Source: Adineta ricciae
Taxonomy: Eukaryota > Rotifera > Eurotatoria > Adinetida > Adinetidae
Assembly (NCBI GenBank): GCA_905250025.1
Contig: CAJNOJ010000281.1
Span: forward strand, 66,985 to 130,984
DNA: 64,000 bases
Direction: 5' to 3'
Shown: positions 2,054 through 64,000 of the stretch, piece by piece
Layout of the letters: every line of letters starts with the position of its first letter
Numbering within the stretch: position 1 is the stretch's first letter
The notes under the pieces: model-generated
Told to the model about the DNA's origin: nothing
Seen by the model: only the letters and a program-made list of their open reading frames with translations
The model's database searches: none
Position numbers and translations under genes: made by a program

Positions 2054-3038
2054 TTAAATTGTTCGCTGTTGTACTGAAAGAACTCGATTGGTTCGTCGCC
2101 AAAAATATATTCGATTTCGAATTTCTCGACGAAATCGTTGCGATGAAATTAAGAAAACATAAAAACTTCCCTGAAAAAAAAAAAGAATTAAAAATATAAA
2201 CATTGATCGAATAAGTAGAACATCAACATACACCGTAATAAACATTAGTGAACAAAGTAGTAATTGTTGATGCAAACGTTTCTTTGACTATTTGATCGGT
2301 ATTTTTGACAAATTGTGATGAAGCCACCAGATATGCATTGTAAATACCATAAGGAGAAATGCTTATAGCAATGAGAATAATTTGAATTAAAGTCATTTTA
2401 ACAACCTGAAGATCTACTTGTCGTTCAGCAAGAATTCTTCTCGAATGAATATTACGATAAGTTAAATATCCAAATGCTGTGGTAAATGCAATTAAGACAA
2501 AACTATTGTAAGTGAGAACATAAATTGATATATAAGTAGTATATCCATTATTAGTAACCATGCAAATATTAGTTGAAGATGTAATATTACCAAATATTAG
2601 TCCAGGAATACCGTGTAGAAGCCAAATAAGTATAAGAATGAAAATGATTCTATGTGCTCGTTTGATATGACTCCATTGACGAAGACGAACATTGCTTGAT
2701 GTTATGAAGAATTGATCGATTGCAGTTAAATATGAACATGTAAATGACATAAGAACAAAAATACTAGAACAATACAAACGTATTTTACACCACACAAGCG
2801 ATGTACGAGTTAAATCTATTTGGTGGCCACTCATAATAATTCGAGATATGGATACTGTTGTTAAATATAAGATATTATCAATTGAAGCAATGAGAAAATA
2901 AAATGTACAAAATGTTCGATAATAAGTACGGACACTTGAAAATATCCATATGTTAAGACTATTACCAATTATACCGATTATTACAACAAACCATCGGAAG
3001 TATATTGTTATCTGTTGACCAATATACGGTAAGGACAT
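2054..3038 (-). CDS. Rhodopsin-like (class A) G protein-coupled receptor, two exons
   Basis: Exon 1 is 3038-2232 and exon 2 is 2170-2054, giving 307 aa. The intron (2231-2171, 61 nt) has the donor GTATGT and a pyrimidine-rich CAG acceptor; the splice joins TNVYYG to GSFYVFLISSQRFRR, the usual TM7-to-tail junction of bdelloid orphan receptors. Seven hydrophobic segments are visible. TM1 carries GNSLNIWIF (the GN motif) and the Cys before TM3 is present (WCKIRLYC). The DRY box is replaced by IDQ after TM3, and the TM7 NPxxY motif is not standard. Ligand unknown; a peptide receptor is a reasonable guess only. The gene points toward the dead oxidoreductase. Confidence 0.85.
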
Positions 3039-3670
3039 TGCTGTTGAATAACACGATATATCTAATAAAAGTGTTGTTTGGAAAGAAAAGGGAGTTTTAT
3101 GTCGAAGTAATTTGTAAATGAATGATTCAGGCGAACTGAAAAGAGAGTGTATTAATGTTTCAAGGGAAGAAAAAAATCATTTATTTATATCTTATAGAGC
3201 TAGAGAAGTTAATAAAAATTTAATCATCGAAAGGATAGGAGAAACAAAGATTATGAGCTTTTACGTTGAATACTCAATAAATAAGGTTCGTCAAGGTTGA
3301 CTTGCATTATCTTCGACAGAATTAACAACTGAAGATACAATAACCTCTATACGCATTTAACATAAAAAATATCGAAACGTGACCCTAGAATTGACCTCTT
3401 GAGAATAATGATCTCCATTTATCTTACAGATTTAAAAGTGAACATCAAGGTTGTTCCTATTTATGTGATGTATGCTATGGATGACTATTATGACCCTGTT
3501 CAATGATCATATTATAGTTACGAATGAAACGATATTAAAACGATCTAGGGGTGAGGGTGTGAAGATCTTTGACAGTAGACATAGAATTACAAGCAATGCT
3601 TGAAATTTTATTTGTTCGAAGAAAAAAGAAATAAAATTAAAACATTAATTTAGTTTTTCTTCGACTGAGA
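3039..3670. other. Intergenic, nothing recognised
   Basis: Spacer between the GPCR and the ubiquitin-like fragment. A 60-codon open frame at 3118-3300 on the plus strand has no recognisable motif and I do not call it. Confidence 0.45.
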
Positions 3671-19270: not shown

Positions 19271-19551
19271 AAACTGAAATATTAAATCAATGTGTGAAAT
19301 GAACGATATGATAAAGATAAAGTAACTGTCAAATCATGTCATTTTGCACAATATCATCGAAAAAATATCCATTAGTCACTATGATTTTCTCTCGAAAGTA
19401 ATGATCGGACGAAAAGGAAGTGAGTCATTGTCGAATGTTTCTTTTTCGTTATCCTAAATGGTCGCTTATTCAACATTGATTTACCATGAAAAGAAAATTA
19501 TTGAAGTGTATCGAATATTATCATTTTTTGATTTTAGAAAAAATATTTTCA

Positions 19552-22019
19552 ATGCAAGAAACTTCTGTTAAACGTTATCCTCTTGATTTATTCAATAATG
19601 AAGAAATTTGTAATCCATTAACATTAATATGGTTGGATAAAACATGTAATGATGATTTACTTGATCCATCATATGTTCGAACATTATTAAAAAAATCTCA
19701 TCAGAATTGTTTATTTTATAATGATATCAAAGTATTTATTGAACATATTCATAAACAATTGATATTTCAAAAAAGTACTCTTTTAATTGTATCAGGATCT
19801 TTTGCTGAAATTCTTTTAAATGATCATTCAATTCGAAGGAAAATTTCTTCGATGAGTATTTTTTNNNNNNNNNNNNNNNNNNNNNNNNNNNNNNNNNNNN
19901 NNNNNNNNNNNNNNNNNNNNNNNNNNNNNNNNNNNNNNNNNNNNNNNNNNNNNNNNNNNNNNNNATTATTTTTTGTAATGATATCAATAAATATTCGAAA
20001 TATTCGAAATCCAGTCATTTTATTGATATTTGTGTTGATTATAATTCATTAAAAGAATCTATTGAACGTATTTTCTTACCATTAACACATGATTTAGATG
20101 AGAATCGTCAATTTAATACAATTCGTTTTTTAAAAACAAAATCTTCTTATAATACAAATGCAGTTTATTCTTATATGTTATTTGTTGAAATATTAAAAGA
20201 AGTTCCACAAACAGATCAAGCTAAAGATTATATGTTAAATAAAATCAAAGATTGGAATCGTTTTAATCCAACACAACTTGAATATATTGAAACATTTCGA
20301 AATACTTATAAACCAAATCAAGCTATTAAATGGTATACAGAACAATCATTTATGTATATTTATGTTAATCGAGCATTTCGAACAGAAAATGTTTCAATGT
20401 GGTATTTATTTCGATTTTATATTAAAGATTTATGTGAACAAATTGAACAAGTTTATCACGAACAAAATAATAAAGAATGCTTAATACTTTATCGTGGTCA
20501 AGGTCATTTACCAAAACAAGAATTTGAAAATCTTTGTTCAAATATTGGTGGTCTTATATCAACAAATGGATTTTTATCATCAACAAAATCATTTCCTTTA
20601 GCTGAATTTTTTCTTGGAGGTGCTCATGATACCGAAACTTCTTGTGCAGTTATTTTTGAAATCACAGTTGATGCAAAGAATCTTAAAAGTACGATATTTG
20701 TTGATATTAGTCAACATTTACCAGAATTAGGCGAAGAAGAAATACTTTTTAATATTGGAACAATTTTTCAAATTGATTCTGTTGAACGTGAAGAAGATTT
20801 TTGGAGAATTAAAATTCATGCAACTGACGATGGATCAATGGAAATAAAAGATAAAATGGATTTAATGAAAAAAAAATTTAAAACAACAAATTTAAATCTT
20901 TTATTTGGTCGATTATTAATTGATATGGGTTTATTTGATAAAGCTCAATCATATTTTAATTTAATTCTACAAATTTTACCTGAAAAACATCAAGATTTAC
21001 CATTAATTAATGATCATTTAGGTGATCTTCAAATGCGTATTCCAAATTATAATAAAGCATTTAAACATTTTCAATTATCATTAAATTTGAAAGAAGAATT
21101 TTTTTCTAAGGATTGTACAAAAATGTGTATTACATATAATCATTTAGGAAATTATTATAAAGCTATTGAAGATACTTCAAAAGCTTTTTATTATTATGAA
21201 AAAACATTAAAATATGAAGATAATCTGATTAATATTGGAATAACAAAATTAAATCTTTCATCAATTTATCTAATGAAACGAGAATTTGAAAAAGCTGAAA
21301 AGATTTGTTTAGATGCACATGAAATCTTTCATAAATTAGAACCTCCTTCTTATGGAGAAATTCTTTTATGTCAAGGAATATTAGGTGATATTTCATTCGA
21401 AAGAAAAGGATATCAACAAGCAGAAAGTTTTTATCATGTTGCATTTGATATGGCAAAAAAATATTTCTCTTTTGGTGATTCTCGTTTGATTAATTGTATA
21501 AATGCATTAGCAAATTTTTATCAAAAACAAGGTAATACTTCTTATGCTTTATATTTTTGTTATCAACAATTAAATGAACATAAAAAATATTTATCAGATG
21601 AAAATCATCTCAATATTGCACAGATTTATATGAAAATTGCTGATTTATTAAATGATAAAAATTATTATAGAAGAGCTTTAAAAATATTTCAAAATAATTT
21701 ACGTAAAGATTATTTCTCAAATGCAAATTGTCTCTTAAAATTGGCTTCGTTTTATTCAAATGAACAATCTTTATATTGTTATATTAAAGCAAATAAATTA
21801 TATAAAAAAATTTATCCAAAAAATCATTCATCAATTATTAAAACACAAAAACAAATAGATGAACTTAAAAAAATGAATATTATTGAAAAATCTTTCGAAC
21901 AAGAACCAATTCTTATTGATTATTTAAATCAATTTATATTTAATAATAATTCTATTCATTTAAATAATCAATCTTCTTCTCTTCAAACATTGGACCATCA
22001 ATCCAATATAGAACTTTAA
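19552..22019 (+). CDS. ADP-ribosyltransferase/TPR protein, interrupted by an assembly gap
   Basis: The start chosen at 19552 (MQETSVKRYPLDLF) follows a possible acceptor (TTTTGATTTTAG); the frame is open from 19486. An N-terminal alpha/beta domain (LTLIWLDKT, LLIVSGSFAE) precedes 100 Ns (19865-19964). After the gap the frame reopens (frame of 19965) into an arginine-type ART domain with R-S-E features: LYRGQG, STNGFLSSTKS and ELGEEEILF. About eight TPRs follow to residue 800 or so (for example DKAQSYFNLIL, AFYYYEKTLKYED). Such enzymes would transfer ADP-ribose from NAD to protein side chains; the TPRs would bind the partner. The two sides of the gap are in different nominal frames because the gap length is a placeholder. 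Paralogue of the gene at 51181. Confidence 0.8.
19865..19964. other. Assembly gap of 100 N inside the ART-TPR gene
   Basis: Exactly 100 N. Both flanks contain TATTTTTT: the left contig ends with it and the right one has it from its third base. See findings. Confidence 0.95.
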
Positions 22020-38116: not shown

Positions 38117-41100
38117 ATGGCACAACCGAGCACTAACAAGATTCAGGCAGCTCTCTTAGCTAAATTAGAAGAATCACGTCAACAGTATCCTGGCGATGAT
38201 TCACAAGCAATTTATATTTTACCTGATGTTTATAATAATGATGATGGACGAATTGAACAATGTTTACAAGAAGAAAAGAAAACTCACGCAGGCGAACGCA
38301 CCGTACTTATTCCCTATTTTTTGGAGAATTTCTATTGGACGGCACTTTTGATCGAGTTTCAATCGAACGGACAGATCGAACGAGCCGAATTCATCGATCC
38401 AAAGAATGAGATTGATCACGTAGCACATCGATTACAAACGGAATTTACTAAAGTTTATCCAGATAAAATTTTACAAATAAAAACTTCGCCAACAACAAAC
38501 AGCAATTCGACGTCAATTGTGGATGTTTTACTTATAGCTGCAAATATTCGGCTTCCAATAGACATAAATCATCAAAAAGAAGGTAATGAATATGAACTTG
38601 CAGAATTGAAAGAAAAATTAGAAAAGGATTTGAAAAGTTACAGTTTGCAGAATGTTGATGAACTACAGACTGAAATAGAAGATACAAAAGCACGAATAGA
38701 GAAATTTCGAGGAAAGCGTAGAAACACAGATGCTCAGAATGAAGTCGAATTTTTAAGTAAACTTCAAAAACTGCAACAACTAGCAGATCAGATAGATAGA
38801 TGGGTCTCGAATACTTCCATATCTTCCGAGAATCACACATTGAAGCTTCAGAAATTGCAAGAAAACTTAAATCGTGGTTTGATCAAGTTCAATCTTCAGA
38901 ATGCAAGCGAATTGCCAGAAGAAATACGCGACACCGAAGAACGAATTCGGCAGTTTCAGAAACGAAATCGAAAAGAAGATGTGCAGAAAGAACTGATCAT
39001 GTTACATGAATTGCAAGAGCTACAAAAGTTTTCCGAAGAAATGCGTAGTCTAACATTTGTTTCCTCTGTATCAACTATTCAACCCTCTCAACCAGTAGTT
39101 TCATCGATTACTGAAAACACGATAATACATAAGGAACAAACGAGAAGTTTATATTCTGAAGATCTACGCCGCGACACATCTATAATGCCATTTTGTGCAG
39201 AAAAACTCATCATGGAGCTTTTAATCTATTACGAGGAAAGATTATCAGAAAATTGTGCGTCTGTACAAGAGGAAAATTTAGAAACTTCTCCGCGACAAAC
39301 CCTACGGGATCAAATTAAGAAAGAAGAATTACTTACAGTAGAAATCCAAACTATTCTTCAAAATATCGAGATCCACCAATCGAGCAACAACCCTCAATTA
39401 GTCATTCACCACTTGAACATACTTTTAAAGAAAATTCGACCATTAAATGTTCGAGAAATCCGAAGACTTGTCAGCGAAGCAGAAAAGACGGCCGAATTAA
39501 TTAAAGATCAGGATATTGTTTTATTGATAGGCGATACCGGCTCAGGAAAATCGACCACGATTCAATTCCTTGCTGGTTGTAAGATGATACAGACTAAAGC
39601 TGAAGTCGCCCCTGGCAAATTTCTTGACCATATTACTATGGATGGAGTTCCGACAAATCCCCAACTGAAGAAGATTCGAAGTAGTGCATCACATAAATCC
39701 GAAACGCGTTATATCGCACCTGTTACAGTACAGTTGAAAGATGTTTTGGGTCCACATGAGACTGGAGTGATTACTCTATGCGATGCGCCAGGTTTTGGCG
39801 ATACAGCCGGCCCAGAAGTTGATATCGCAAATTTTCTCGGAGTTGTCGAAGCTCTGAAAGGCGCGAAAAGTGTTAAATTACTTGTTGTAACAAGCTATAA
39901 AGGTTTAGGTGATCGTGGACAAGGTATTCAGAAACTAGCACGTATTTTAATCAATATGATACTTCAAATAGAAGATAAACTTCGTAGTATATGCTATGTC
40001 TTTACAAAATATCCTGAAATAAACATCAATACATTGTTAACAGATATTAAAAAATGTACTGTAGACACCGAAAATTCAAGTGTCCGATCCGATAGTGCCT
40101 TTGCAGCTGTTTTAACAGATATGATAGAAAAAACTGAAAAACATGCTTTTAATATTCACCCTGTTCATGACAATCCAAAAGAATTATTAAGAAAATTAAT
40201 ACATATGAAAGGTATTCAATATCCCGAAGAAGTTTTTTGCTTCTCTATGAGTGAAGAAACACGAACTAATATTGACAAACATGTACAGAGAGATCGACTT
40301 GGTGTAAATTATGCAATAAAACACAAAGATATTCAGCTTCTATTGTACTATCTAAACGATTTAAAGATGTTAAAAGATTTAATCAAGAAATATGATGCTC
40401 CAGAAACTTATGACCAATCGGTACGTTTGATCAGTGAAACGATTAGTCACTATTGCACAGAAGAAAAAGAGAAATTTCGTCGTATTTTGATTAGTCGTGA
40501 TGGCTTAAGAGAAGATGACATTCGAGAGTATCACATTTGTATTGAATACCTTAGAGAAATTCAAATCCTAAAAGAACATTTAGGATCATCATTATTATCA
40601 CCAGAAGTCTTAATGCAATTCATAAGTGTTCACCTTGAAGAAAGAAGACATCTTTTAGAAAATGAAGATTTAGACAGTTCATTAATTGAAATCTATTTGA
40701 ATAATTTTCGTTTGTTGAAAACTTTATTTGACGAACTCGAAATTGATTATCATAATCGATGTAAAGAATTCGAAAAACGCTTTGATGAACTTGTCGAATC
40801 TGCACGTGAGCCTATTCTATCAAATGATTTCAAACGCGTTGTAGAACTCTTTACTAAAATCTCGAAAGCTGTTCAAAGTCTTAAAAATCATTTAAATCAA
40901 CGAATCGTCGAAACATATCATCAAATTGTTGAATTGTTTTTGCGTCATCTGAACAATTTTTCAACTCAAACAGATCTAATTTTAGTTAAAATTCGATTAA
41001 CTCAGGAGGATGTTGACGTTCTTAGCACATTTATGGAAATCTTGAGATCAGCGAAAGAAAGTTATGCACTTCGAGAATTTGTTTCGATATATCTAACATC

Positions 41101-44100
41101 GTTTGAAAGAGACAGTAATGATTTAAATGCGATCTATGATGAATTTCTCGGGAAAATTCGAAAATATTTTGAGGAAATTATCATTCGAATTGACAAATTC
41201 TTGGAAACAAATGATGAGCACTTTTTAGAAGAGACACAGAAATTAATTGAAGATATGAATCTTATTCGTTCAATTCCCGAACTTGAATCAATCACCGCTA
41301 ATGCATATTATCGTACTGTTGAAAAAATACGCAGTTATGTGGATCAAACCGAAAGAAATATCGAGCAATTACTGAGTAACATCGATCACCAATCAGAAAA
41401 TATGAATTCTAAACAACTTGTACGATCAATAACACGTTTAAAGAATACACAATGGGTTAACAGTATTAGTCCTGGTACATATAATTCAATAATGAAACGT
41501 CTTACCGAAGAATTAGTAGAACATAGTTCACAATTAGAAGGCTGTTTGAGAAAACTCGATTTAACTTTAAAATGCCCGGAAAATGTCTCGAAAGCAGAAG
41601 AAATCATCGAGAAAAATTTGTCTCTAAGCATTTTAGAACAACATTTTCCTGAAATTGAAGTTTATCGTAGAAATATTTGCGAATATTTTCTCCAATGTGT
41701 ACGAGTAGTTTTTGATCATATTGAAAGAGATTTGAATTTCGTCAACAATAAAGATTATCGACAAGATCAAAACTTCAAGCAAATCAAAGAATCACAGAAG
41801 CCTTTGGATCCACTCTCGGCCGATTTTGATGAAGACGAATCGAAAGAATTAGAAATTGTCAAATCGAGGAAACAAGAAGCGACCGATCAATTAAGAGATT
41901 TACATTTACATCTTGAAACGTATGATAAAATCGTACCGAGTAAAACAAGAACGAAATTTCTAGGTCTTTTTAAGACATCAAATGAGAAAAAAAGTATTCC
42001 AGAACTTGAATTTTTCAAATCGATCGGTTTTGAAAATATCGAAAGTTTAAAAGGAAAAATTACGAAACTTCAAAATGAACTTCGAAAACTCGATGAAAAA
42101 GAAACTATTTTACATAAGTCTCTAACGTCTCTCCGTTCGAGTTTATCATCATCGTTCACTGAACATGAAAAAAACTTTCCACTGTACAAATTTAATGATC
42201 GATTGCGTTTATCTCTACTGAATAATGCATTACTGTATGTGAAATCTTGTGAACAAATTCGCTCCGATTATGTCAAAGAACTCGTCGTGAGGATCAATCA
42301 AATCTTGGTGAATTATTTACGTGAATATAATTGTGAACTCGACGAGAAAACCAAAGAAAGTTTTGAGGAAACGATTCGTATGAATGACGTTTATGAAGAA
42401 AATTATTCTCGATATTCTCAAAGTTTAGAAATCAATCTAGATGAGTTATCTTCTCTTGAAAAATTGCCAAATATTTTTCAATATCTCGATGGCAAACAGA
42501 AAATTCAACATTGGCAACAAACATTTATCAATTATTATCGCCTGATCAAGAATCAACTTGAAGATTACAAAATTTCCGATAAAAATAAACAATTAAGACA
42601 ACAATTACTTATCGTACAAACATTAAGTTGTGTCGATCGTTTTTGTGGAAGAGAATTCGAAAGTAATGGATACGGAGTTTTATATCGACAATATCATGTC
42701 GATTTAGTTAAAGATTGTAGAGAATCTTATAAAGTTGTATTAGAATACATCGAAACAGGGGATTATGCAAATGTTGATTTACAGTTATCTCATATTGATG
42801 ATAAACTTATGAATTCAAAAGATTTTGATCAAATTAAACATAATTTACAGTACTCCTTAAGTAAATTAATGAATGAGATTGAAATTCTGACGGGTACTTT
42901 AGATGAGAAAATTGAACGAGAAGGAAATAAATTCGAGAAAATCCAAGAAATCAAAGCCAATCTTGATAAAATTCGTCACATTTTAAAGAAACATGATATT
43001 ATGAAATTAATCGATAAAGAAATTGAAATTCGCTTGAAAAATTTAGAACATAATAATAATAAGATTCTCTCAGCAATTTTCTTAATCTATCTCGAATCGA
43101 TCGAAGCTTATATAGAGGCGGAATGTTTTATTGAAGCTGAACAAAGTATGGAATTATTCAATCGAATACTACGTGACTTAAATGGCTATTACAAATCCGA
43201 TGAAATTTTCCAAAAATCGAAAGAATTAAATGTGCGATTACAAAACATTGTTGCCGAAATCTTAAGTCAAAACGACTTTACAGAAATTCACAATTATTCA
43301 ATCAATCCACCGAAACATATTCTTGCTAAATTAGAAATTGTCGCTTCAAAATGTGGCAAAAAATATCACAAAGCTTACACTTCGATGTTAGACAAACTTG
43401 CCAAACATTGGACTTCTGCTATGAAAAACGCACGTGCTCTATGTCTAGACGACCGAATTGCAAAAATACATTCATTCAAATATGCATTACAATTTCTACC
43501 TGACGGTTTACAAAATTCATTTCAATCACAGATCGATGACTTGATTGCAGAGAGTACCAATGAAGAAAATCGTTATAAACAAGAACTACAAACATGCATT
43601 TCGAATACAGATAGAAGTGTACGTAGTATTCTTAAAATGCGAGAATTGATTGAAAAATTGTGTAAACAAAAATTGAATGAACTCCTCAATCAACTATGTG
43701 AACATTGTCTAAGTCATGTTCATATGGATCGAATCGATGTCGAAAATTATCTAGAAAAACAAGATATTCGACGTGCTTGCGAATCGATTGAGAAGATTTA
43801 TGAATACAAAGAACATCTCGGTGTTTATATTCTTGAAATCGAAGGCATCTCTCTCAAAGTTCGACACTTGTTAATCCGTACGTTTTTAAATTCTTGTGAA
43901 ATTCTAGCGAATGTTGATTCCATTGAACAAACCGAAAAAGTTGCAAAAGCATTTTCTGATATTCTCCTGTATCTTGATTTCTCGACATTCAATCTTAAAA
44001 TCGAAGTCTTATTTGCAGAAGAGACTTTAATTACTGCTCGAGAAGATTTTGAGAAAATGTTGGAATATTTTCATAGAAATTCGAAAACATTTTCGATCGC

Positions 44101-47100
44101 ACTTCATGATCTGAATATGAATGACTTGCATAAAGCGATGTTTATTGCGAAGAAGTGGGATTTAGTTTTAATGCAAATTGTCACTTGCCGATCGAAACAT
44201 CACTTAATCGAGAATTTCTCGAAAAACATGAAAACAAGTCTTTCGTATACAAATATGATTTGCGAATTGGAAAAATTAGTTCAAAATTTCATTTTTCAAG
44301 TCAATGTTGAATTCATTAACGATGATACAAAGAAATTTGAAGTCAAACGTGATGAATTATTTAACCATATGAAAAAAGCCTTGAATACATTAAAATTAAT
44401 CGATTCGAAATTTCGAGATATGGTACCATTGACATTTGACATTGAAAGATTAGAAGAAAGTCTGCAGATAAAAGTCAACATGTTGATTACTCAACTTTTA
44501 AACACAACATCGAAAGATGAACTTTCGACAAAACATTCCAATGACTTTCGAATCTACTACACTCATCTTGTCTCACTTGATAAACACTTCAATATTTGCG
44601 AAAATCGTATTCGACATGCGTTAGACTCTGTTGAGGAGAAAATTTTCGAACAAGTTTGTTCGCTCCGAAAACAGATAACATCAAGGGATGTTTCGATTGA
44701 AGAAATTTCGAAAATCTTAATCGAAATGAAATTGTATGCAGAAAATCTACCGATGTTTAATATGAAAATCAATGCTGAAATCGATGAAGCTTTGAAAATC
44801 TATAAAGATAAGCAAGGAATGTTAGGTATCGTGAAAATGGTTGTAGAATTGGAAAAATCTGATACAGGAACGAGATTGATGAGTGAACATTCTTGTTTAA
44901 CGGGAGAAGATTGGAAAAGACGACGTGACAAAATGCAAAATCAAGATGACATTGAATATATTTTAAATCGATTAACTGGAGATGAAATTTCCGTAGATGT
45001 TTTACGTTCGCGTTATAAAACTTTTAGAAAAATCTATGATGAATTAATATCTACTAATTTAAAAATATTAGATTCAGGTTCAAGTAAGGATATCGATATA
45101 TCAAAGTTAGTTACACAAATTAAATATATTATTGGAACAGTAACTCATACACCGAAGTCGATTACATGGGATCGAGCTTTGGCACAAGAAATACCCGAAC
45201 TTTTAGCATATATTTTCGCGATTTGGACTTTACAAAATACTGAGCATTATAATGCAATGCGCGGCATTGAATTATCACAATCTTATTTATTGATTCCACA
45301 CGTCGGACAAGTGATTGCTATTTTTCGTCTTCTAGGAATCGGATATGACACACGTGGAACAAGTTTCAGTTTAGATTTCGCATCAAAGGGGAAAACTGCG
45401 AATGATTTGGTTAATAATCTAGTCGAAATAGGAACAGGCGAAGGGAAATCTGTTGTTTTAGCCATAACTTCATGTATTTTTGCTTTGATTGGAATCGATG
45501 TGAATTGTTCATGTTATAGTGAAGTTTTAAGTAATCGAGATAAGAATGATTTTCGATTGGTATTTCGAGCACTTGGAATAGAAGATCGCATTCAATATGG
45601 CACATTTAATAAATTATGTGAACAATTTTTAAATGAACAATGTAATATACGAGAAAAAGTTCATGATTTGATTGTAAAAAATCAAAATGTATTGGCAAAA
45701 GTTGATACAAGAGAACGTCTACGTCCGAAAGTATTGCTAATTGATGAAGTTGATGTATTTCTAAGTGATCGTTTTTACGGCGGAATGTATACACCTTCAA
45801 TAGTTTTAAAAGATCCGTCAATAAAGGGCTTATTAGATTCAATTTGGAAACATAAGGATGAATTAAGAACATTGAATAGTGTAAAAGCTCTAACACCGTA
45901 TAGAAATTGTGCTACTCGATATAGTAATTGGATTTTTCTTTTCGATGAAGCAATCAAAGATATGTTAGTTGCTTTACAATCATATCAATTTTCAACGTAT
46001 ATCGTACGAGATGATAAGATTAGTTATGTTGAAGGTGAATCAGTTGTCGATAATGTCATTCGCGGTTATGATACAGTCTGGGCATATTATCATGAAAATG
46101 AAAAAGGAAAAATTAGTCATAGCAGTCTGAAAATGAACGTAGGGATTATTGTTAATTGTGGGACATTTTCTTATGCTGAAATGCCTCACGATTTTGCTTA
46201 TATTGCAGGTGTTACAGGTACTTTGAAAACACTTGCTAAATCAGAAAAACGTGTATTAGAAAATGTATATCATATACACAAAAATACGTATACGCCGTCA
46301 GTTTTTGGAAAGAATAATCGTGTTTATGAATCGACGAGTGATGTACATGTAGTGGAAGAATCCGAGTATTTTAAGAGAATCCGTCTAGAAATTGATACCA
46401 TTTGTGGAGCTGATCGTGCCATTCTCGTATTTTTTGAATCGGAAGACAAATTAATGGCATTTTGGAATTCTCCGGAGTTATCTTCAATAAAAAGAGATGT
46501 AGAAACTATAACGGAAAAGAGTTCTGTTCGAGAAAGAGACTTCGGTATCAGAAAAGCATCAACTGTTGGCAAAGTGACTTTATTTACACGAACATTTGGA
46601 CGAGGAACAGATTTTATATGTCATGATCCGAAACTTTTAACCAATGGAGGTATTCATGTACTTCAAACATTTTTCTCCCGAGAATTATCCGAAGAATATC
46701 AAATCATTGGAAGAGGTGCGCGACATGGTGATCGAGGTTCATATCGAATGATTTTATTAGATAAAGATTTAGAATGGGTTCTTGGTTCGACTTGGAAGAC
46801 AGAACTTTCGAAAATTTCCAACTTGAAACTTTATGAGACTATTAATAATGCTCGGCATTTAATTTATGAAAGTGCATGTAGTGCAAAGGATTTCGGTCTA
46901 GATCAATGCAAATGTGATCATCAAGCTTCAAAAGATTTCATGAATGCACTATGTAAAGGAAGTATTAAATCGATCAAAACATTCTTAACTGAACATAATA
47001 AAGGCGCAAACATTGCTAGAGAGTTATCACGAACAGTTGTACTCATGGATGCCACAGGTTCGATGTCTGGCTTATTGTCGGCTGCTAAAGAAACGGTTTG

Positions 47101-47746
47101 CACAATGTTTGAACGGGCTTCAACGATTTTAAAAGAGAAAGACTTACCTACTGATGTATTTCAAATGCAATTTGTAGTTTATAGAGATTATGATTGTAGA
47201 GAAGACGGAATTCTTCAGAGTTCGTCTTGGGAAACGAAGCCTCAAAATTTGAGAAATTTTATGGCAGGAATTACCGCGAAGGGTGGAGGTGACTTTGAAG
47301 AAGCGATCGAAATTGGATTATGGCATGCTGTTCAAGAAGGCGATACTATAGAGTCAATTGCGCAAGTTATTCTGATAGGTGATGCCCCTGCAAAAGAGAG
47401 AGAAGCAATTGAAAGAGATCGAGATGAGAGTGGCGGAGAATATTATTGGATGAACACAAAATTCAAAGAGCCAACTCATTTTAGTATCGAGTTAGACAAG
47501 TTAAAAGAGAAAAATATTCCAGTTCATGCTTTTTATCTTGTCGATGCCGCACGAGAAAATTTTGAAAGAATTGCACGAGAGAGTAAAGGGCGCTGTCAAC
47601 AGCTAAATATCCATTCTCCGAAGGGCGCTGAGTTACTGACGGATTTTGTAACAGAAGAAGTTCTTAGAAAAGCAGCTGGAAGTCAAGGAGATGCTGCAGT
47701 TGAATTGTATCGAAAGAAATATGTGAAAAAAACGTTTTTATCTTAA
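38117..47746 (+). CDS. Giant GTPase / helical / SecA-like ATPase / VWA protein, 3,209 aa
   Basis: One uninterrupted frame of 9.6 kb. Domains: residues 1-135, a domain with IPYFLENFYWTALLIEF ... FIDP, weakly like a CE-clan (Ulp1-type) peptidase but without a clear catalytic Cys; 150-330 coiled coil; about 460-720 large GTPase with P-loop GDTGSGKST (472), DAPGFGDT (556) and TKYP (about 630); 720-2370 long alpha-helical region; about 2370-2900 SecA-like motor with IPHVGQVIAIFRLLG (Q motif), GTGEGKS (2437), LIDEVDVFL (2541), IAGVTGTL, GRGTDF and QIIGRGARHGDRGSY; 2970-3180 VWA domain with MIDAS DATGSM, GITAKGGGDFEEA and LIGDAP. No signal peptide or TM. It is probably a cytosolic NTP-driven machine. 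The function is unknown; SecA itself is a bacterial/plastid translocase not expected in animals. Confidence 0.85.
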   Translation: MAQPSTNKIQAALLAKLEESRQQYPGDDSQAIYILPDVYNNDDGRIEQCLQEEKKTHAGERTVLIPYFLENFYWTALLIEFQSNGQIERAEFIDPKNEIDHVAHRLQTEFTKVYPDKILQIKTSPTTNSNSTSIVDVLLIAANIRLPIDINHQKEGNEYELAELKEKLEKDLKSYSLQNVDELQTEIEDTKARIEKFRGKRRNTDAQNEVEFLSKLQKLQQLADQIDRWVSNTSISSENHTLKLQKLQENLNRGLIKFNLQNASELPEEIRDTEERIRQFQKRNRKEDVQKELIMLHELQELQKFSEEMRSLTFVSSVSTIQPSQPVVSSITENTIIHKEQTRSLYSEDLRRDTSIMPFCAEKLIMELLIYYEERLSENCASVQEENLETSPRQTLRDQIKKEELLTVEIQTILQNIEIHQSSNNPQLVIHHLNILLKKIRPLNVREIRRLVSEAEKTAELIKDQDIVLLIGDTGSGKSTTIQFLAGCKMIQTKAEVAPGKFLDHITMDGVPTNPQLKKIRSSASHKSETRYIAPVTVQLKDVLGPHETGVITLCDAPGFGDTAGPEVDIANFLGVVEALKGAKSVKLLVVTSYKGLGDRGQGIQKLARILINMILQIEDKLRSICYVFTKYPEININTLLTDIKKCTVDTENSSVRSDSAFAAVLTDMIEKTEKHAFNIHPVHDNPKELLRKLIHMKGIQYPEEVFCFSMSEETRTNIDKHVQRDRLGVNYAIKHKDIQLLLYYLNDLKMLKDLIKKYDAPETYDQSVRLISETISHYCTEEKEKFRRILISRDGLREDDIREYHICIEYLREIQILKEHLGSSLLSPEVLMQFISVHLEERRHLLENEDLDSSLIEIYLNNFRLLKTLFDELEIDYHNRCKEFEKRFDELVESAREPILSNDFKRVVELFTKISKAVQSLKNHLNQRIVETYHQIVELFLRHLNNFSTQTDLILVKIRLTQEDVDVLSTFMEILRSAKESYALREFVSIYLTSFERDSNDLNAIYDEFLGKIRKYFEEIIIRIDKFLETNDEHFLEETQKLIEDMNLIRSIPELESITANAYYRTVEKIRSYVDQTERNIEQLLSNIDHQSENMNSKQLVRSITRLKNTQWVNSISPGTYNSIMKRLTEELVEHSSQLEGCLRKLDLTLKCPENVSKAEEIIEKNLSLSILEQHFPEIEVYRRNICEYFLQCVRVVFDHIERDLNFVNNKDYRQDQNFKQIKESQKPLDPLSADFDEDESKELEIVKSRKQEATDQLRDLHLHLETYDKIVPSKTRTKFLGLFKTSNEKKSIPELEFFKSIGFENIESLKGKITKLQNELRKLDEKETILHKSLTSLRSSLSSSFTEHEKNFPLYKFNDRLRLSLLNNALLYVKSCEQIRSDYVKELVVRINQILVNYLREYNCELDEKTKESFEETIRMNDVYEENYSRYSQSLEINLDELSSLEKLPNIFQYLDGKQKIQHWQQTFINYYRLIKNQLEDYKISDKNKQLRQQLLIVQTLSCVDRFCGREFESNGYGVLYRQYHVDLVKDCRESYKVVLEYIETGDYANVDLQLSHIDDKLMNSKDFDQIKHNLQYSLSKLMNEIEILTGTLDEKIEREGNKFEKIQEIKANLDKIRHILKKHDIMKLIDKEIEIRLKNLEHNNNKILSAIFLIYLESIEAYIEAECFIEAEQSMELFNRILRDLNGYYKSDEIFQKSKELNVRLQNIVAEILSQNDFTEIHNYSINPPKHILAKLEIVASKCGKKYHKAYTSMLDKLAKHWTSAMKNARALCLDDRIAKIHSFKYALQFLPDGLQNSFQSQIDDLIAESTNEENRYKQELQTCISNTDRSVRSILKMRELIEKLCKQKLNELLNQLCEHCLSHVHMDRIDVENYLEKQDIRRACESIEKIYEYKEHLGVYILEIEGISLKVRHLLIRTFLNSCEILANVDSIEQTEKVAKAFSDILLYLDFSTFNLKIEVLFAEETLITAREDFEKMLEYFHRNSKTFSIALHDLNMNDLHKAMFIAKKWDLVLMQIVTCRSKHHLIENFSKNMKTSLSYTNMICELEKLVQNFIFQVNVEFINDDTKKFEVKRDELFNHMKKALNTLKLIDSKFRDMVPLTFDIERLEESLQIKVNMLITQLLNTTSKDELSTKHSNDFRIYYTHLVSLDKHFNICENRIRHALDSVEEKIFEQVCSLRKQITSRDVSIEEISKILIEMKLYAENLPMFNMKINAEIDEALKIYKDKQGMLGIVKMVVELEKSDTGTRLMSEHSCLTGEDWKRRRDKMQNQDDIEYILNRLTGDEISVDVLRSRYKTFRKIYDELISTNLKILDSGSSKDIDISKLVTQIKYIIGTVTHTPKSITWDRALAQEIPELLAYIFAIWTLQNTEHYNAMRGIELSQSYLLIPHVGQVIAIFRLLGIGYDTRGTSFSLDFASKGKTANDLVNNLVEIGTGEGKSVVLAITSCIFALIGIDVNCSCYSEVLSNRDKNDFRLVFRALGIEDRIQYGTFNKLCEQFLNEQCNIREKVHDLIVKNQNVLAKVDTRERLRPKVLLIDEVDVFLSDRFYGGMYTPSIVLKDPSIKGLLDSIWKHKDELRTLNSVKALTPYRNCATRYSNWIFLFDEAIKDMLVALQSYQFSTYIVRDDKISYVEGESVVDNVIRGYDTVWAYYHENEKGKISHSSLKMNVGIIVNCGTFSYAEMPHDFAYIAGVTGTLKTLAKSEKRVLENVYHIHKNTYTPSVFGKNNRVYESTSDVHVVEESEYFKRIRLEIDTICGADRAILVFFESEDKLMAFWNSPELSSIKRDVETITEKSSVRERDFGIRKASTVGKVTLFTRTFGRGTDFICHDPKLLTNGGIHVLQTFFSRELSEEYQIIGRGARHGDRGSYRMILLDKDLEWVLGSTWKTELSKISNLKLYETINNARHLIYESACSAKDFGLDQCKCDHQASKDFMNALCKGSIKSIKTFLTEHNKGANIARELSRTVVLMDATGSMSGLLSAAKETVCTMFERASTILKEKDLPTDVFQMQFVVYRDYDCREDGILQSSSWETKPQNLRNFMAGITAKGGGDFEEAIEIGLWHAVQEGDTIESIAQVILIGDAPAKEREAIERDRDESGGEYYWMNTKFKEPTHFSIELDKLKEKNIPVHAFYLVDAARENFERIARESKGRCQQLNIHSPKGAELLTDFVTEEVLRKAAGSQGDAAVELYRKKYVKKTFLS

Positions 47747-50750: not shown

Positions 50751-51180
50751 CATAATAAATAAATAATTCTTCGAGGATAAATTCAATACGAGATAAACAA
50801 TCCGGTGACCATTAGTTAACACAGAAAATACGCAAGACACGGTAACGCTATTTCTTTTTTTCTTGAAATTAGATTTAAAGAAAACAGAATCGGATAAATG
50901 AGTGACACAAAGAGACAAGACGTAATTTTATTTATCAGTACACAACTGAGTCACAGAGTGCACAAATGAAATCAGCTGAAAACTGATTTTTAACTATATT
51001 TCACATAAAATCATACGTCTAATGTTAAAGCAGATTCTCGTAAGTAAATTCTAAACTATTGTAATTTGCAAACGTCCCTATCTCATCATGTACTTTACTT
51101 TTCTTTACACATTCTTCTGCTCTAGGTTCATTTTTTTGCATATTTTGATTGCTGTTCTTCGCGCTGTTGTGCTCAATAAT
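50751..51180. other. Intergenic, upstream of ART-TPR gene
   Basis: The frame is open from 51088 into the ART-TPR gene, with a hydrophobic stretch, but I regard this as 5' leader. No sharp promoter seen. Confidence 0.4.
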
Positions 51181-54100
51181 ATGGATTCTACTGCACATTC
51201 ATCACATGAACATATTCGAGAAACTAATTATATTCATACCTCAAATCCTGCGAAATATGAAAATATAGAAGATATTAATGTTATTTGGCTAGACTCACGT
51301 TTAAATGTTTCGTTGGATTGTTTGGACACAGAAAGACGTTTACGGCGCATGATTGATCGTCTATTGACATTTAATTCCTGTGACGCTTTTCTGAAATACA
51401 TTGATACCGAAACACAAGAACGGATATTCTTTATTGTTTCAGGTAGCGATGGCGAATTCATCGTGCCACGTATCCATTCTTTATCAAAAATCTCATCGAT
51501 CTATATTTTCTGCGGTGATATAGTTAAACATGAACAATGGTCAAAAGATTTCACGAAAATCCATGGTATTTTCAATACAAAAGATGCTCTATTCAAGAGA
51601 GTTACGTCAGACATGACGTTGTACTTGACAAATTTATTGTCATTTAGCATACTCGGAAAACAGGACATCTATCAAAAATCATTATACAGTTTATCATCTG
51701 AAGGTGCACGTTCCATGTGGTTTCAATTACTTATCGAAGTTTTGGTATCTATGGAACATTCGGATGAAGCTAAAAGTGATTTATTGGAAATAAGTCGACA
51801 ACAATACAAAGATGATCAAGCAGAAAATAAAAAAATAGATGAGTTTGATCGAACATATACACCGGAACATGTCGTATGGTGGTATACAACAGACAGCTTT
51901 CTATATCGGCTATTAAACAAAGCTTTACGAATAGAAAATATTGATATCATTTATAAATTTCGTTTGTTTCTGACTGATCTAGATAATCAGATAAAACGAT
52001 TGTACAAGGAACAATCATCACTTCTACAATCAAAAGAAACATTTTATCGCGGTCAGAAAATACCACAAATCGAACTTAGAAATTTACAGGAAAATATTGG
52101 TAGTTATGTGGCAATGAACACATTTACGTCAGTATCACAATCACGTGAGATCGCATTAATCTATGCAGGCAATGGCGAAGACCGACCTGAACTAGAGTCT
52201 GTAATTTTTCAAATAGAAATCAACGAACGTTTATCACCATGTTGTAATATCCGAGACTTTAGTCAATTTTCAAATGAAGAAGAACTTTTATTAACAATCG
52301 GTAGCGTTTTCCGTATAGTAGACGTGAAACCTTCTGGTGATCAATGGATAATTTATTTAACTCTCGATAAATCTGACAATCAGAAAATGGAAGGACTAAA
52401 GAACTTTTTAAGACAAGATCTTTTCCATGAAACTGCATTAATTAACATCGCAAAAATTCTATTTCGAATGTCTGACTACAATCGAGCTGAACAGTATTGT
52501 ATTAGAGCGGAAAAAGAACTTTCTTCTGATAACAATGATCGAGTTGGTCTCTACCAACTTCTTGGCGAGATTTATCAAAATGGAATGGGAGATTATAATA
52601 AAGCTAAAGAAATGTACGATAATGCTCTCTCGTTTAGTGATAATGTGTCACAGTTTGTGAAGATCTTTGGCAATATGGGATTACTTCAAATACAGATGGG
52701 AAGTTATGATATGGCTTTGACGACTCTTAATCAGGCAGAGCGACTGTCTCGCAAATATAATTTATCCAATTCTTCTGCTATTAACACATTAGCTAATATT
52801 TGTACCAATATTGGAATTACTTATCGTCATAAATTAAACTTTATAAAGTCATTACAGTATTATAGGCACGCTTTAGACCTGAAGTTACAAATAGTACCAG
52901 AATTAGATCCCTCACTTGCTGCTCTTTATAGTAATATTGGCAATTTAAGTTGTATTACATGTGACTATGAAGCGTCGTTAAAAGCATATGAAAACGCTTT
53001 GAAGATCCAACTACAGTGTTTACCGGAAAAACATAAAGATCTGGCCACAGTATACAATAACATCGCTCTCGTATATGTGACTACTGAACGATATTCACAA
53101 GCCTTAGAGAATTTTAAAAAATCTTTAAATATGTTTGAAGCATTGTTAGACGCAGATCATCCGGCGATAGCCACTCTATATCATAATATTGGTGACACTT
53201 ATCAGCGATGGAAACAATACGATATAGCTGTGATTAATCTAGAAAAAGCACTGCAACTGCGTATTCAGAAGTTATTACCGACACATAAACATATTGCTGA
53301 ATCATATGAATCTCTCGGATGGGTATACTATTACCTTTCAAATTATGAAAAAGCATTGGATTTTTGTGAGAAGGCATTGAAAATCGAACCAAATAGTCCC
53401 AGTGTTTACAACTGTATGGGAATAATCTTTAATTTACAATGTAATTACAGTGGAGCGCTATCAACGCTTCAAAAAAGTATTGATTTATATGAAAAGTTTC
53501 CAGCCGAGCGTACCATGGCGCTTGCGAAGATCCGTACAACTATTGGCAACATCTTATCGATTCAAAAAAAATTTGACGATGCACTTAAACATTATAACAA
53601 AGCAATTGAAACTTATCATTCTGGAAAATTATCAAATAGCTCCGATTTTATATATATATACAGTGCACGAGGAGCGTTTTTCAGCCTCACGGGAGAATAT
53701 GATAAAGCTCTTGCCGATTTGACAATGGCTTTCGACATGGTAAAAAACTCTAAAGTAAATTATATGCTATCGGAGATTCTAATACATATGGGTAACCTGC
53801 ATCTCAAACAAAATCATTTTGCTGAAGCACTGAGCTGTATTAAAGATGCTGAGAAGAATGAATCGTCATTATCTGTGCAGGAGCATTCTATAAAAGGCGA
53901 AATACTTCGTCTATTAGCCCATGTATCGCATAAACAAGTACAGTATGACAATGCTTTAAAATATTATAGAAATGCGTTGGAAATATTCTCTCAAGCTGTT
54001 CCTCCTAATAGGCTAACTATTGCCTATATCCACGTGGAGTTAGGTTGCATATATGAACAAAAATGTCTGTATGACGAATCATTAAATGCTTTTCAAGAAG

Positions 54101-54207
54101 CATTGCATTTATTCACGATGTTATTTACCTCTACTCATTCAGCTATTTTATATGTAAATGATAAAATTACTCATATTAACGCAATCCGACAAAGAAACGA
54201 CATATAA
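51181..54207 (+). CDS. ADP-ribosyltransferase/TPR protein, intact, 1,008 aa
   Basis: The start is chosen at ATG 51181 (MDSTAHSSHEHIRE), by analogy with the paralogue at 19552; the open frame begins at 51088 and the extra 31 residues are hydrophobic, so a signal-anchor form cannot be excluded. Residues 30-200: alpha/beta domain (NVIWLDSRL, FFIVSGSDGEF, ISSIYIFCGDI) of unknown role. Residues about 230-400: ART domain with FYRGQK (R), FTSVSQS (S) and SNEEELLL (ExE), the arginine-specific R-S-E set. From about 415 onward: some 14 TPRs of the kinesin-light-chain type (SLAALYSNIGNLSCITCDYE, IATLYHNIGDTYQRWKQYD). It likely mono-ADP-ribosylates protein targets in the cytosol. Single exon, no defects. 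Confidence 0.88.
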   Translation: MDSTAHSSHEHIRETNYIHTSNPAKYENIEDINVIWLDSRLNVSLDCLDTERRLRRMIDRLLTFNSCDAFLKYIDTETQERIFFIVSGSDGEFIVPRIHSLSKISSIYIFCGDIVKHEQWSKDFTKIHGIFNTKDALFKRVTSDMTLYLTNLLSFSILGKQDIYQKSLYSLSSEGARSMWFQLLIEVLVSMEHSDEAKSDLLEISRQQYKDDQAENKKIDEFDRTYTPEHVVWWYTTDSFLYRLLNKALRIENIDIIYKFRLFLTDLDNQIKRLYKEQSSLLQSKETFYRGQKIPQIELRNLQENIGSYVAMNTFTSVSQSREIALIYAGNGEDRPELESVIFQIEINERLSPCCNIRDFSQFSNEEELLLTIGSVFRIVDVKPSGDQWIIYLTLDKSDNQKMEGLKNFLRQDLFHETALINIAKILFRMSDYNRAEQYCIRAEKELSSDNNDRVGLYQLLGEIYQNGMGDYNKAKEMYDNALSFSDNVSQFVKIFGNMGLLQIQMGSYDMALTTLNQAERLSRKYNLSNSSAINTLANICTNIGITYRHKLNFIKSLQYYRHALDLKLQIVPELDPSLAALYSNIGNLSCITCDYEASLKAYENALKIQLQCLPEKHKDLATVYNNIALVYVTTERYSQALENFKKSLNMFEALLDADHPAIATLYHNIGDTYQRWKQYDIAVINLEKALQLRIQKLLPTHKHIAESYESLGWVYYYLSNYEKALDFCEKALKIEPNSPSVYNCMGIIFNLQCNYSGALSTLQKSIDLYEKFPAERTMALAKIRTTIGNILSIQKKFDDALKHYNKAIETYHSGKLSNSSDFIYIYSARGAFFSLTGEYDKALADLTMAFDMVKNSKVNYMLSEILIHMGNLHLKQNHFAEALSCIKDAEKNESSLSVQEHSIKGEILRLLAHVSHKQVQYDNALKYYRNALEIFSQAVPPNRLTIAYIHVELGCIYEQKCLYDESLNAFQEALHLFTMLFTSTHSAILYVNDKITHINAIRQRNDI

Positions 54208-62958: not shown

Positions 62959-64000
62959 CAGTGAAACCTCTCTATAGTGGACACCATTTGGACTGAAGCA
63001 AAGTGTTCACTATACAGAGGTGTCCGCTTTATAGAGGTGTAGCTGTTTTGCAAAATCAATATACATATATGAATGAAATCGATGTACTTCTGTATTACTA
63101 CATAACTTTTCAAGAAAAAACGATAAATTAGAGCATTTATTACTATGTTTTATTGTTTCATTGAGAATAAGCGTAAGCGCTAACAAGAAAAGATAAATAA
63201 ATAAATATAAAAACTCAACAAGAAGAGAAATAATCTTTAATAGAACTTTGTTTAATTGCTTTTGAATCGAGGTATACATCAATTAATTGTGATTCCAGTT
63301 CGTATAAAGCATTGTGCAACTGAGGCTGTTCGTGTATTGCATAAAGATGAATTGTTTTCACCATTCCTAAGATTTCCGCTATATTGGGTGACTTTTTAGT
63401 AACACTTGTTTCGTCTTCTTCTTGTTCGTTCTCATCTCCTTGAGAAATTTCAATCAGCTCCTTCAAATGTACGTCGTCATCCCATTCATTGAAAGCAGGA
63501 ATCGATGAATCAATATCAACAAATTCAGCAGCTGTTAGCTGTTGACCACCAATTCGAACATGAGCTAGCAAAGCTTCAAGCTGTTCAAGTGAATCACCAT
63601 GATTGACTAGTTGCACATTTGTTTGATCAGCAATATCAATATCAATATCGATTGTTGATAAAGACGTTAGTGACGAATCAATAAAACCAGCAGCTCGAAA
63701 TCCACCTTGAATTGTGACATTCGTTACTGCTTTCCATGCTAAATCGATCCATTTAATTGCCTCTAAAACACTAATAGAAACTTGATCGATAGTTAGAGCG
63801 GTAGTACATTGAGAAATGATATGTCTGGCTAATTTTTGTCGGTAATAACATTTGAATGATTTTATAACACATCGATCTAACGGTTGACATTTGGAAGTAG
63901 TGTTTGGTGGAAAAAAGACTAATTTGATATTAGAAAAAGTTTCATCAACCATATGGCAAGGTGCATTGTCCAAAAATAGAATAATCTTACGAGCATTTCT
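62959..64000 (-). mobile_element. pogo/Tigger-like DNA transposon, runs off the window
   Basis: The end begins CAGTGAAACCTCTCTATAGT, preceded by TA (62957-62958), the usual target of this superfamily. The subterminal part (62975-63045) repeats the motif in both orientations (CACTATACAGAGG, CTTTATAGAGG). The transposase gene lies inside, pointing toward this end. The other terminus is beyond 64000. Confidence 0.82.
63215..64000 (-). CDS. DDE transposase of pogo/Tigger type, C-terminal part
   Basis: The frame is open from the window edge to the stop at 63215 (262 codons). It holds the second catalytic Asp in ILFLDNAPCH, then FFPPNTTSKCQPLDRCVIKSF, the hallmark of Tigger/jerky transposases, followed by KCYYRQKLARHI. 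The C-terminus is acidic. No stop or frameshift in the visible part, so it may be functional. The N-terminal HTH DNA-binding domain and first Asp are outside the window. Confidence 0.85.
   Translation of the reverse strand, partial: RNARKIILFLDNAPCHMVDETFSNIKLVFFPPNTTSKCQPLDRCVIKSFKCYYRQKLARHIISQCTTALTIDQVSISVLEAIKWIDLAWKAVTNVTIQGGFRAAGFIDSSLTSLSTIDIDIDIADQTNVQLVNHGDSLEQLEALLAHVRIGGQQLTAAEFVDIDSSIPAFNEWDDDVHLKELIEISQGDENEQEEDETSVTKKSPNIAEILGMVKTIHLYAIHEQPQLHNALYELESQLIDVYLDSKAIKQSSIKDYFSSC

What the first reader, a model, noticed from the sequence alone, without database searches (positions are those of the whole stretch)
38117..47746. Single-exon giant protein joining a large GTPase, a SecA-like ATPase and a VWA domain
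Seen: intact P-loop and DAPGFGDT of a GTPase, 1,600 residues of helix, then a SecA-type motor with Q motif, GTGEGKS, DEVD, TGT, GRGTD and QxxGRGxRxGD, then a VWA with MIDAS, in one 9.6-kb intronless frame. Known: SecA is the bacterial/plastid preprotein motor; animals have no plastid. Very large GTPases in vertebrates are interferon-induced. Inference: a horizontally acquired or composite NTP-driven machine, perhaps for defence or for extracting or threading polypeptides, with VWA as the target sensor.
Basis: partly seen in the sequence, partly recalled or inferred. Interest (0 to 1): 0.88.

Follow-up and report, generated by a model that had tools for sequence, protein, structure and literature searches.

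The report
Giant GTPase–SecA–VWA protein in rotifers
A 3,209-residue protein of a bdelloid rotifer joins an apparently dead ubiquitin-protease domain, a GTPase, a SecA-type motor and a VWA domain, and belongs to a giant protein family found in some animals, protists and bacteria whose function is not yet known.

Summary
One open frame (38117-47746, +, 3,209 aa) encodes a GTPase, a long middle part, a SecA-type motor and a MIDAS-type VWA. The motor is SecA-type: the first 36 of the 50 Foldseek rows shown are all SecA (E 1.4e-17 to 1.8e-9). It is no chance fusion: Rotaria socialis has a 56%-identical end-to-end relative, and GTPase-SecA-VWA recurs in Hydra, Tetrahymena, Brachionus and gammaproteobacterial MAGs. 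Catalytic residues of ATPase, GTPase and MIDAS are near-invariant. The genome is Adineta ricciae by matching proteins and contig lengths. A few relatives carry U-box, GBP plus Jacalin, ankyrin or SAM modules, which hints at ubiquitin and immunity, but such labels are rare. I favour a ubiquitin-aimed, GTPase-positioned protein-pulling machine; this is inferred. Transfer between bacteria and eukaryotes is likely, its direction unresolved.

The parts
38117..47746 (+). whole open frame, 3,209 aa, one exon as far as DNA shows (P0001)
   Evidence: 56% identity with P0002 of Rotaria socialis, residues 7-3209
38135..38545 (+). ULP/OtDUB-like (CE-clan) domain, residues 7-143; triad positions read Tyr73-Asp94-Ser129, so probably not a protease
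38591..39076 (+). two helical repeats of about 76 residues (159-236 and 237-320)
   Evidence: self-alignment 37% identity, E 3e-15; helices in the model; extra overlapping alignments in relatives
39404..40276 (+). TRAFAC-type GTPase, residues about 430-720
40277..44983 (+). long middle part, residues 721-2289, helical where modelled
   Evidence: 721-800 and 2060-2290 mainly helical; 801-2059 not modelled
44984..46966 (+). SecA-type motor, residues about 2290-2950: two RecA-like halves, alpha/beta insertion (about 2550-2695) at the place of the SecA clamp, one 46-residue helix (2902-2947)
47021..47692 (+). VWA domain with MIDAS, residues about 2969-3192

Best explanation
The gene encodes a dual-NTPase protein-handling machine. 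Shown: an intact chain of ULP-like fold, helical repeats, GTPase, helical arm, SecA-type motor and VWA, with conserved NTPase and MIDAS residues and a mostly Cys-to-Ser active site in the ULP-like fold. Inferred, in order: the inactive ULP-like domain holds ubiquitin (or a ubiquitin-like tag) without cutting it, as laboratory Cys-to-Ser mutants of such proteases do (recalled); the GTPase assembles or positions the machine on a marked target or membrane; the SecA motor then pulls on an unfolded stretch of the target; the VWA docks a partner or target by its metal site. The likely role is cell-autonomous defence or ubiquitin-linked quality control. Without room for SecA's full C-terminal part it is probably not a SecY export motor.
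For: Fold and motif evidence. End-to-end conservation. ULP-like domain in 44 of the 120 listed homologues, the query included; 29 of the 44 have an organism name and all 29 are Rotaria or Adineta. Ser rather than mixed residues at the nucleophile: 41 of 46 rows, 3 Ala, 2 Cys; no row has His, Asp and Cys together. Other modules in relatives picked because of their precomputed labels: U-box (P0082, P0096 by scan; P0087 by label), GBP plus Jacalin (P0135), ankyrin (P0164), SAM (one of 14). In the sister family of SecA-like giants, labels show OTU in 1 (P0194) and C48 in 3 (P0244, P0261, P0280) of 120 listed. Expansion: 53 of the 120 listed homologues are named Rotaria (30) or Adineta (23).
Against: No expression, binding or activity data for this gene. 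The ULP-like domain is in only 1 of the 44 further proteins (P0129) found from a bacterial member, so ubiquitin binding cannot be the core function of the whole family. The window copy also lost the His (Tyr73) and may not bind. The other ubiquitin or immune-type labels are few among the 164 listed family members: U-box 3, GBP plus Jacalin 1, ankyrin 1, SAM 1. The Death-domain label of P0026 is weak: no single stretch passes on its own and the best lies in the helical-repeat region; the NB-ARC match of P0164 is under its cut-off. Of 14 relatives with long N-termini and no ULP hit, one showed an interaction domain (SAM). The clamp was not confirmed: 5k9t (SecA with its clamp, recalled) aligns over 393 residues and motor-only 3bxz over 392. 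G4 reads TKYP, not [NT]KxD. No immune gene neighbourhood was recognised in the window.
Confidence: 0.35

Rival explanations
1. Exchange with bacteria that live in protists and invertebrates: the architecture arose or circulates as a host-acting effector, and rotifers domesticated copies (or bacteria took them from hosts).
For: Full GTPase-SecA-VWA chains in two gammaproteobacterial MAGs (L029, L033), GTPase-SecA in an Actinomycetota-labelled (L030) and a chlamydial MAG (L031, contig-limited); 4 of 5 of these genomes also carry a normal SecA at 400-444 bits, so this is an extra gene. P0082, named a gammaproteobacterial MAG protein, has a U-box. Passages of papers: SecA-like domains in Amoebophilus effectors (PMC3482391), phage WO with more similarity to invertebrates than to bacteria (PMC5062602), Legionella fallonii lfa2470 in a list of eukaryotic-type proteins (PMC4256840).
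Against: Bacterial rows do not form one basal group; they sit in at least three places and the root is unresolved. Eukaryotic members include Hydra, Tetrahymena, Arcella, Reticulomyxa and Hexamita. The papers concern SecA-like domains in general. That the MAG organisms live inside hosts, or secrete the protein, was not tested.
Confidence: 0.35
2. A nucleotide-driven signalling switch: the SecA motor works as a sensor or scaffold that changes shape, without moving polypeptide.
For: Full SecA C-terminal part absent (94 residues between motif VI and VWA); GTPase plus VWA fit assembly roles; ankyrin, SAM, GBP and lectin modules in single relatives.
Against: All motor motifs, including both motif VI arginines, are near-invariant, and an insertion is kept where SecA has its clamp.
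Confidence: 0.22
3. A nucleic-acid helicase of superfamily 2 mistaken for SecA.
For: Weak Pfam Helicase_C, DEAD or AAA matches in some relatives; helicase and DUF3638 rows in the viral structure library.
Against: First 36 Foldseek and first 28 VIA rows all SecA; PDB sequence searches rank SecA first; SecA-type GTGEGKS, DEVD and GRGTD.
Confidence: 0.04

Closest known systems
SecA / SecA2 preprotein translocase ATPase
   Same: Fold of both motor halves, motif set, insertion between DEVD and TGT, a long helix after motif VI
   Different: 15-22% identity in the structural alignments; about 94 residues between motif VI and VWA where the PDB SecA chains (first five rows) run 239-302 residues further; fused to GTPase and VWA; 4 of 5 bacterial genomes with a member hold a separate normal SecA
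SecA-like domains in phage WO of Wolbachia (PMC5062602), Amoebophilus effectors (PMC3482391), actinobacterial giant toxins (PMC8195603) and Legionella fallonii lfa2470 (PMC4256840); passages only
   Same: SecA-like domain outside the export motor, in phage WO and Amoebophilus beside ubiquitin-type domains
   Different: No GTPase-helical-SecA-VWA chain in the passages seen; which SecA-like family they hold was not tested
Second SecA-like giant family of the same genome (C31, C97, C323, C165, C275, C11, C212)
   Same: Giant SecA-bearing proteins in bdelloids, Tetrahymena, records named as arthropods, and Rickettsiales; OTU or C48 labels in 4 of 120 listed
   Different: No GTPase, VWA or ULP match in these proteins with the profiles built here; SecA closer to true SecA (up to 144.8 bits)
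OtDUB / ULP family (CE clan)
   Same: Fold of residues 7-143; His and Asp positions kept in 35 and 32 of 46 rows
   Different: Nucleophile Ser in 41 of 46 rows
IRG, GBP, Mx, GIMAP and Toc34 GTPases
   Same: Fold of residues 430-720, P-loop and DxPGxxDT; one relative carries a GBP domain instead (P0135)
   Different: No Pfam GTPase family reaches its cut-off in P0001; G4 reads TKYP
DUF3638 giant proteins of large viruses
   Same: Structural match of the SecA part (Hokovirus, Foldseek E 6.5e-8)
   Different: No DUF3638 match in P0001 up to E 1

Membership tests
SecA-type motor (ATPase fold) | Motifs GEGK[ST], DEVD, TGT, GRGTD and QxxGRxxRxGDxG | tested here: met
   Walker A Lys 164/164; DEVD D, E and last D 164/164; motif V GRG 161, 164 and 164 of 164; motif VI arginines 162 and 163 of 163
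SecA-type motor (ATPase fold) | Fold closer to SecA than to other superfamily 2 ATPases | tested here: met
   first 36 Foldseek rows and first 28 VIA rows of the 50 shown in each are all SecA
SecA-type motor (ATPase fold) | Preprotein cross-linking (clamp) domain inserted between motif II and TGT | tested here: inconclusive
   about 146-residue alpha/beta insertion at the right place; PF01043 not found in P0001, weak or over cut-off only in the sister family; 5k9t and 3bxz align over equal lengths
Preprotein translocase SecA proper | Complete scaffold, wing and two-helix-finger region after motif VI | tested here: not met
   about 94 residues between motif VI (ends 2874) and VWA (from 2969), one 46-residue helix in it; PDB SecA chains run 239-302 residues past the matched end (first five rows)
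Preprotein translocase SecA proper | Works with SecYEG in export | not testable with these tools
   no functional data
ULP/OtDUB cysteine protease (CE clan) | Fold | tested here: met
ULP/OtDUB cysteine protease (CE clan) | His-Asp-Cys triad | tested here: not met
   Ser 41, Ala 3, Cys 2 of 46 rows (two rows repeat others); 0 of 46 have all three; window copy Tyr-Asp-Ser
TRAFAC GTPase | G1 and G3 motifs and fold | tested here: met
TRAFAC GTPase | G4 [NT]KxD | tested here: not met
   window reads TKYP; of 132 rows Thr 113, Lys 106, Tyr 72 or Phe 37, Pro 85
Immunity-related large GTPase (IRG/GBP/VLIG) | Specific relationship rather than general GTPase fold | tested here: inconclusive
   Foldseek favours IRG, Mx and GBP at high rmsd, VIA favours GIMAP and Era; VLIG not tested on its own
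VWA with MIDAS | DxTxS metal-site motif and fold | tested here: met
   Asp 146, Thr 148, Ser 149 of 151 rows; third-motif Asp 147; fold. The second-motif Thr was not assigned

The most novel reading that the evidence does not exclude
Animals, ciliates, amoebae and some bacteria share an apparently undescribed class of giant protein-extraction machines in which a GTPase-controlled SecA motor, aimed in bdelloids by a naturally occurring Cys-to-Ser ubiquitin trap, pulls tagged proteins off invaders or organelles: SecA-type polypeptide translocation at work in the cytosol of animals.
Probability: 0.22. Interest if true: 0.93.

Novelty: new variant of a known kind. Interest (0 to 1): 0.77.

Why it matters
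SecA is taught as a bacterial and plastid export motor. Here its fold, with catalytic residues intact, sits in a giant animal protein beside a second NTPase and a disabled ubiquitin-protease fold, and the same chain is found in protists and in two bacterial genomes that also keep an ordinary SecA. If it threads polypeptides, eukaryotes have a polypeptide-pulling motor besides AAA+ unfoldases; if it is immune, it links bacterial and animal proteins of conflict through one family. It is testable: the ULP-like domain and the motor-VWA part are short enough to express.

Tried and rejected
Rejected: ordinary helicase (the list also holds SRP54 and coiled-coil rows below SecA); chance open frame; assembly fusion of neighbouring genes (end-to-end relatives; three long single frames in one genome); a viral gene (139 stretches matched a pattern in viral contigs, none encoded a relative, 1 scan; the 50 BFVD rows shown are mainly VWA, DUF3638 and helicase proteins); a known anti-phage defence protein (PADLOC: nothing for P0001 or P0106, a marginal mad8 match, E 0.0067, for P0082). 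NCBIfam gave only SecA2 and ABC-type matches far under cut-off. No Rfam or tRNA gene in the window. No IRG, GBP or Mx row is among the 50 VIA rows shown for the GTPase model. Direction of transfer could not be decided: the gammaproteobacterial rows L029/L033 fall in the 32-row group with Hydra, Tetrahymena and the second bdelloid group, beside the window's 23-row group; long branches, quick method, SH-aLRT only. One search used 58 of 125 rows (thinned at 72% identity); one search used these, 44 later proteins, one Hydra protein and four outgroup rows (107).

Literature: ten library searches, of which I saw listings only, and of large result sets only the first 8 to 20 rows: on this family in rotifers or other eukaryotes, 77, 78, 81 and 83 on SecA-like proteins in symbionts, OtDUB/SecA or the Pfam name, 82 on bdelloid immunity. 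None of the listings or passages seen describes the GTPase-SecA-VWA chain. The four one search hits look from their titles like word matches such as Secale. Seen as passages: PMC8195603, PMC3482391, PMC5062602, PMC1800911 (ordinary SecA only), PMC4256840, PMC5037449 (a Daphnia transcript labelled SecA DEAD-like), PMC11521996 (ordinary SecA only). The library is open-access, so prior description elsewhere is not excluded.

Full report
What is there. The frame 38117-47746 (+) reads 3,209 residues without a stop; the stop-free run is 3,213 codons against a maximum of 166 in 200 mononucleotide shuffles of the + strand. Start and end are homologous to those of a Rotaria socialis protein: residues 7-3209 align to 15-3292 at 56% identity. 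GC is 33% against 31% for the window, and GC3 of 25% lies within the range of three neighbouring frames (7-28%), so composition does not mark it as recent foreign DNA. The eight most hydrophobic 19-residue windows (mean 1.69-2.14) start at 2391-2448, inside the SecA motor, where they are probably core; a membrane anchor was not otherwise tested.

Where it is. The genome (G000, 130 Mb) is Adineta ricciae: paralogue L035 is 100% identical over 3,212 residues to P0030, named Adineta ricciae, whose longest contig has the same length as C137 (273,565); P0165, P0201, P0222 and P0270 of A. ricciae repeat the lengths of C31, C11, C165 and C323. The genome holds the C-terminal SecA-VWA module over its full length at four places (C281 = window, C137, C364, C373); C451 matches the SecA part only, and C389 holds a VWA piece with two TGA. 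C137 and C373 show single frames of over 3,000 residues with ULP-like, GTPase, SecA and VWA matches (the C137 locus ends inside the VWA); C364 runs into the contig end; the C373 match contains one TGA.

Are the sites alive? Over the 164 listed family members (169 profile rows) the Walker A Lys is 164/164 and DEVD D/E/D 164/164; motif VI arginines are 162 and 163 of 163. GTPase (132 rows): G1 Lys 122/122, SETR Thr 126/126, G3 Asp 128/128. MIDAS: Asp 146, Thr 148 and Ser 149 of 151 rows. Rows were found with profiles of this family. Such conservation over sequences down to about 30% identity suggests that these sites work.

How wide is it? The first homologue search found 288 proteins, 120 listed: 30 named Rotaria, 23 Adineta, 1 Brachionus, 2 Hydra, 4 Tetrahymena, 1 gammaproteobacterial MAG and 1 EukProt transcript; for the other 58, the query included, no organism is given. 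With profiles built here, 120 of 120 carry SecA, 99 GTPase, 113 VWA and 44 the ULP-like domain; many are fragments, so absences are soft, and profiles built from these proteins find them easily. All 29 ULP carriers with an organism name are Rotaria or Adineta. A second search from bacterial L033 gave 77 proteins, 44 of them new, adding Arcella, Reticulomyxa and Hexamita; 1 of the 44 (P0129) has the ULP-like domain. In bacterial genomes one scan gave 5 loci: L029 and L033 carry GTPase, SecA and VWA; L030 GTPase and SecA without VWA; L031 GTPase and SecA, cut by its contig ends; L032 SecA from the contig edge to a stop, no VWA. Four of the five genomes also hold a normal SecA. By eye, neighbours of L032 and L033 look like ordinary bacterial chromosome genes (recognised from memory, not searched).

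Origin. Two quick trees (58 and 107 rows) place bacterial rows in at least three separate positions (L030-L032; L029/L033; P0082 beside P0096), and bdelloid rows in two groups apart from Brachionus. That pattern suggests several transfers or much loss. The root and the L029/L033 position change between the trees, so donor and recipient are not decided.

What it probably does. The motor is SecA-type, a fold whose characterised members move polypeptide (recalled). Only about 94 residues separate motif VI from the VWA, too few for SecA's whole wing and two-helix finger, so SecY-coupled export is unlikely. Some relatives' N-termini point to ubiquitin or immunity: U-box (P0082, P0096 by scan; P0087 by label), GBP plus Jacalin in P0135 (which has no match to the usual GTPase profile), ankyrin in P0164 and SAM in one of 14 scanned. 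Against this, such labels are few among the 164 listed members, the examples were picked for their labels, the Death match of P0026 rests on no single stretch and lies in the helical repeats, and the NB-ARC match of P0164 is under its cut-off. In bdelloids a protease fold whose nucleophile is Ser in most copies looks kept for binding. I therefore favour a ubiquitin-aimed, GTPase-positioned protein extractor in defence or quality control (0.35), level with exchange with host-associated bacteria (0.35, compatible with it in part) and ahead of a pure signalling switch (0.22).

What is known. Deposited names reach 'SecA family profile domain-containing protein', 'predicted GTPase' or 'Helicase-related protein'. 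Papers seen in passages note SecA-like domains in Amoebophilus effectors, giant actinobacterial toxins, phage WO, with more similarity to invertebrates than to bacteria, and one Legionella protein. None of the passages describes GTPase-SecA-VWA. I rate it a new variant of a known kind: known folds in an apparently undescribed and widespread assembly.

Noticed in passing
G000 contigs C31, C97 (two close together), C323 (two), C165, C275, C11, C212, C505; L009-L028: A second family of giant SecA-bearing frames without GTPase, VWA or ULP matches; 1,125 homologues (120 listed) in bdelloids, Tetrahymena, arthropod-named records and Rickettsiales, a few labelled OTU, C48, ankyrin or TPR. The distal C323 copy is broken into several frames. 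A separate small frame near the C11 gene matches the VWA profile (26.6 bits).
   Followed up: partly
P0135 (protein without organism name, 2,649 aa): Jacalin lectin and a GBP GTPase domain in front of SecA and VWA, with no match to the usual GTPase profile.
   Followed up: partly
P0026 (protein without organism name, 3,286 aa): A Death-domain match (40.4 bits whole-protein, no single stretch passing) whose best stretch, 169-218, lies in the helical-repeat region: perhaps repeats adding up, perhaps a sign that the repeats are Death-like.
   Followed up: partly
window 38591-39076 and relatives: The N-terminal helical repeat seems to vary in copy number among relatives, as shown by overlapping repeated alignments.
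   Followed up: no
G000:C373:26349-27596 and C389:57313-57954: Partial or decayed further copies: N-terminal pieces in a 450-aa frame, and a VWA piece with two TGA.
   Followed up: no
window 19486-20052: An open frame containing a run of masked or unread bases (X in translation).
   Followed up: no
window 20175-22019 and 51088-54207: Two long frames that look by eye like TPR proteins with an ADP-ribosyltransferase-like front half; not searched.
   Followed up: no
window 9692-11922 (-) and 63215-64000 (-): Frames that look by eye like pieces of hAT-type and Tigger-type transposases; not searched.
   Followed up: no
viral structure library, model of residues 2060-3209: DUF3638 proteins of giant viruses, and one viral protein named ubiquitinyl hydrolase 1, match the SecA part by fold, hinting at another giant SecA-like family tied to ubiquitin.
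   Followed up: no
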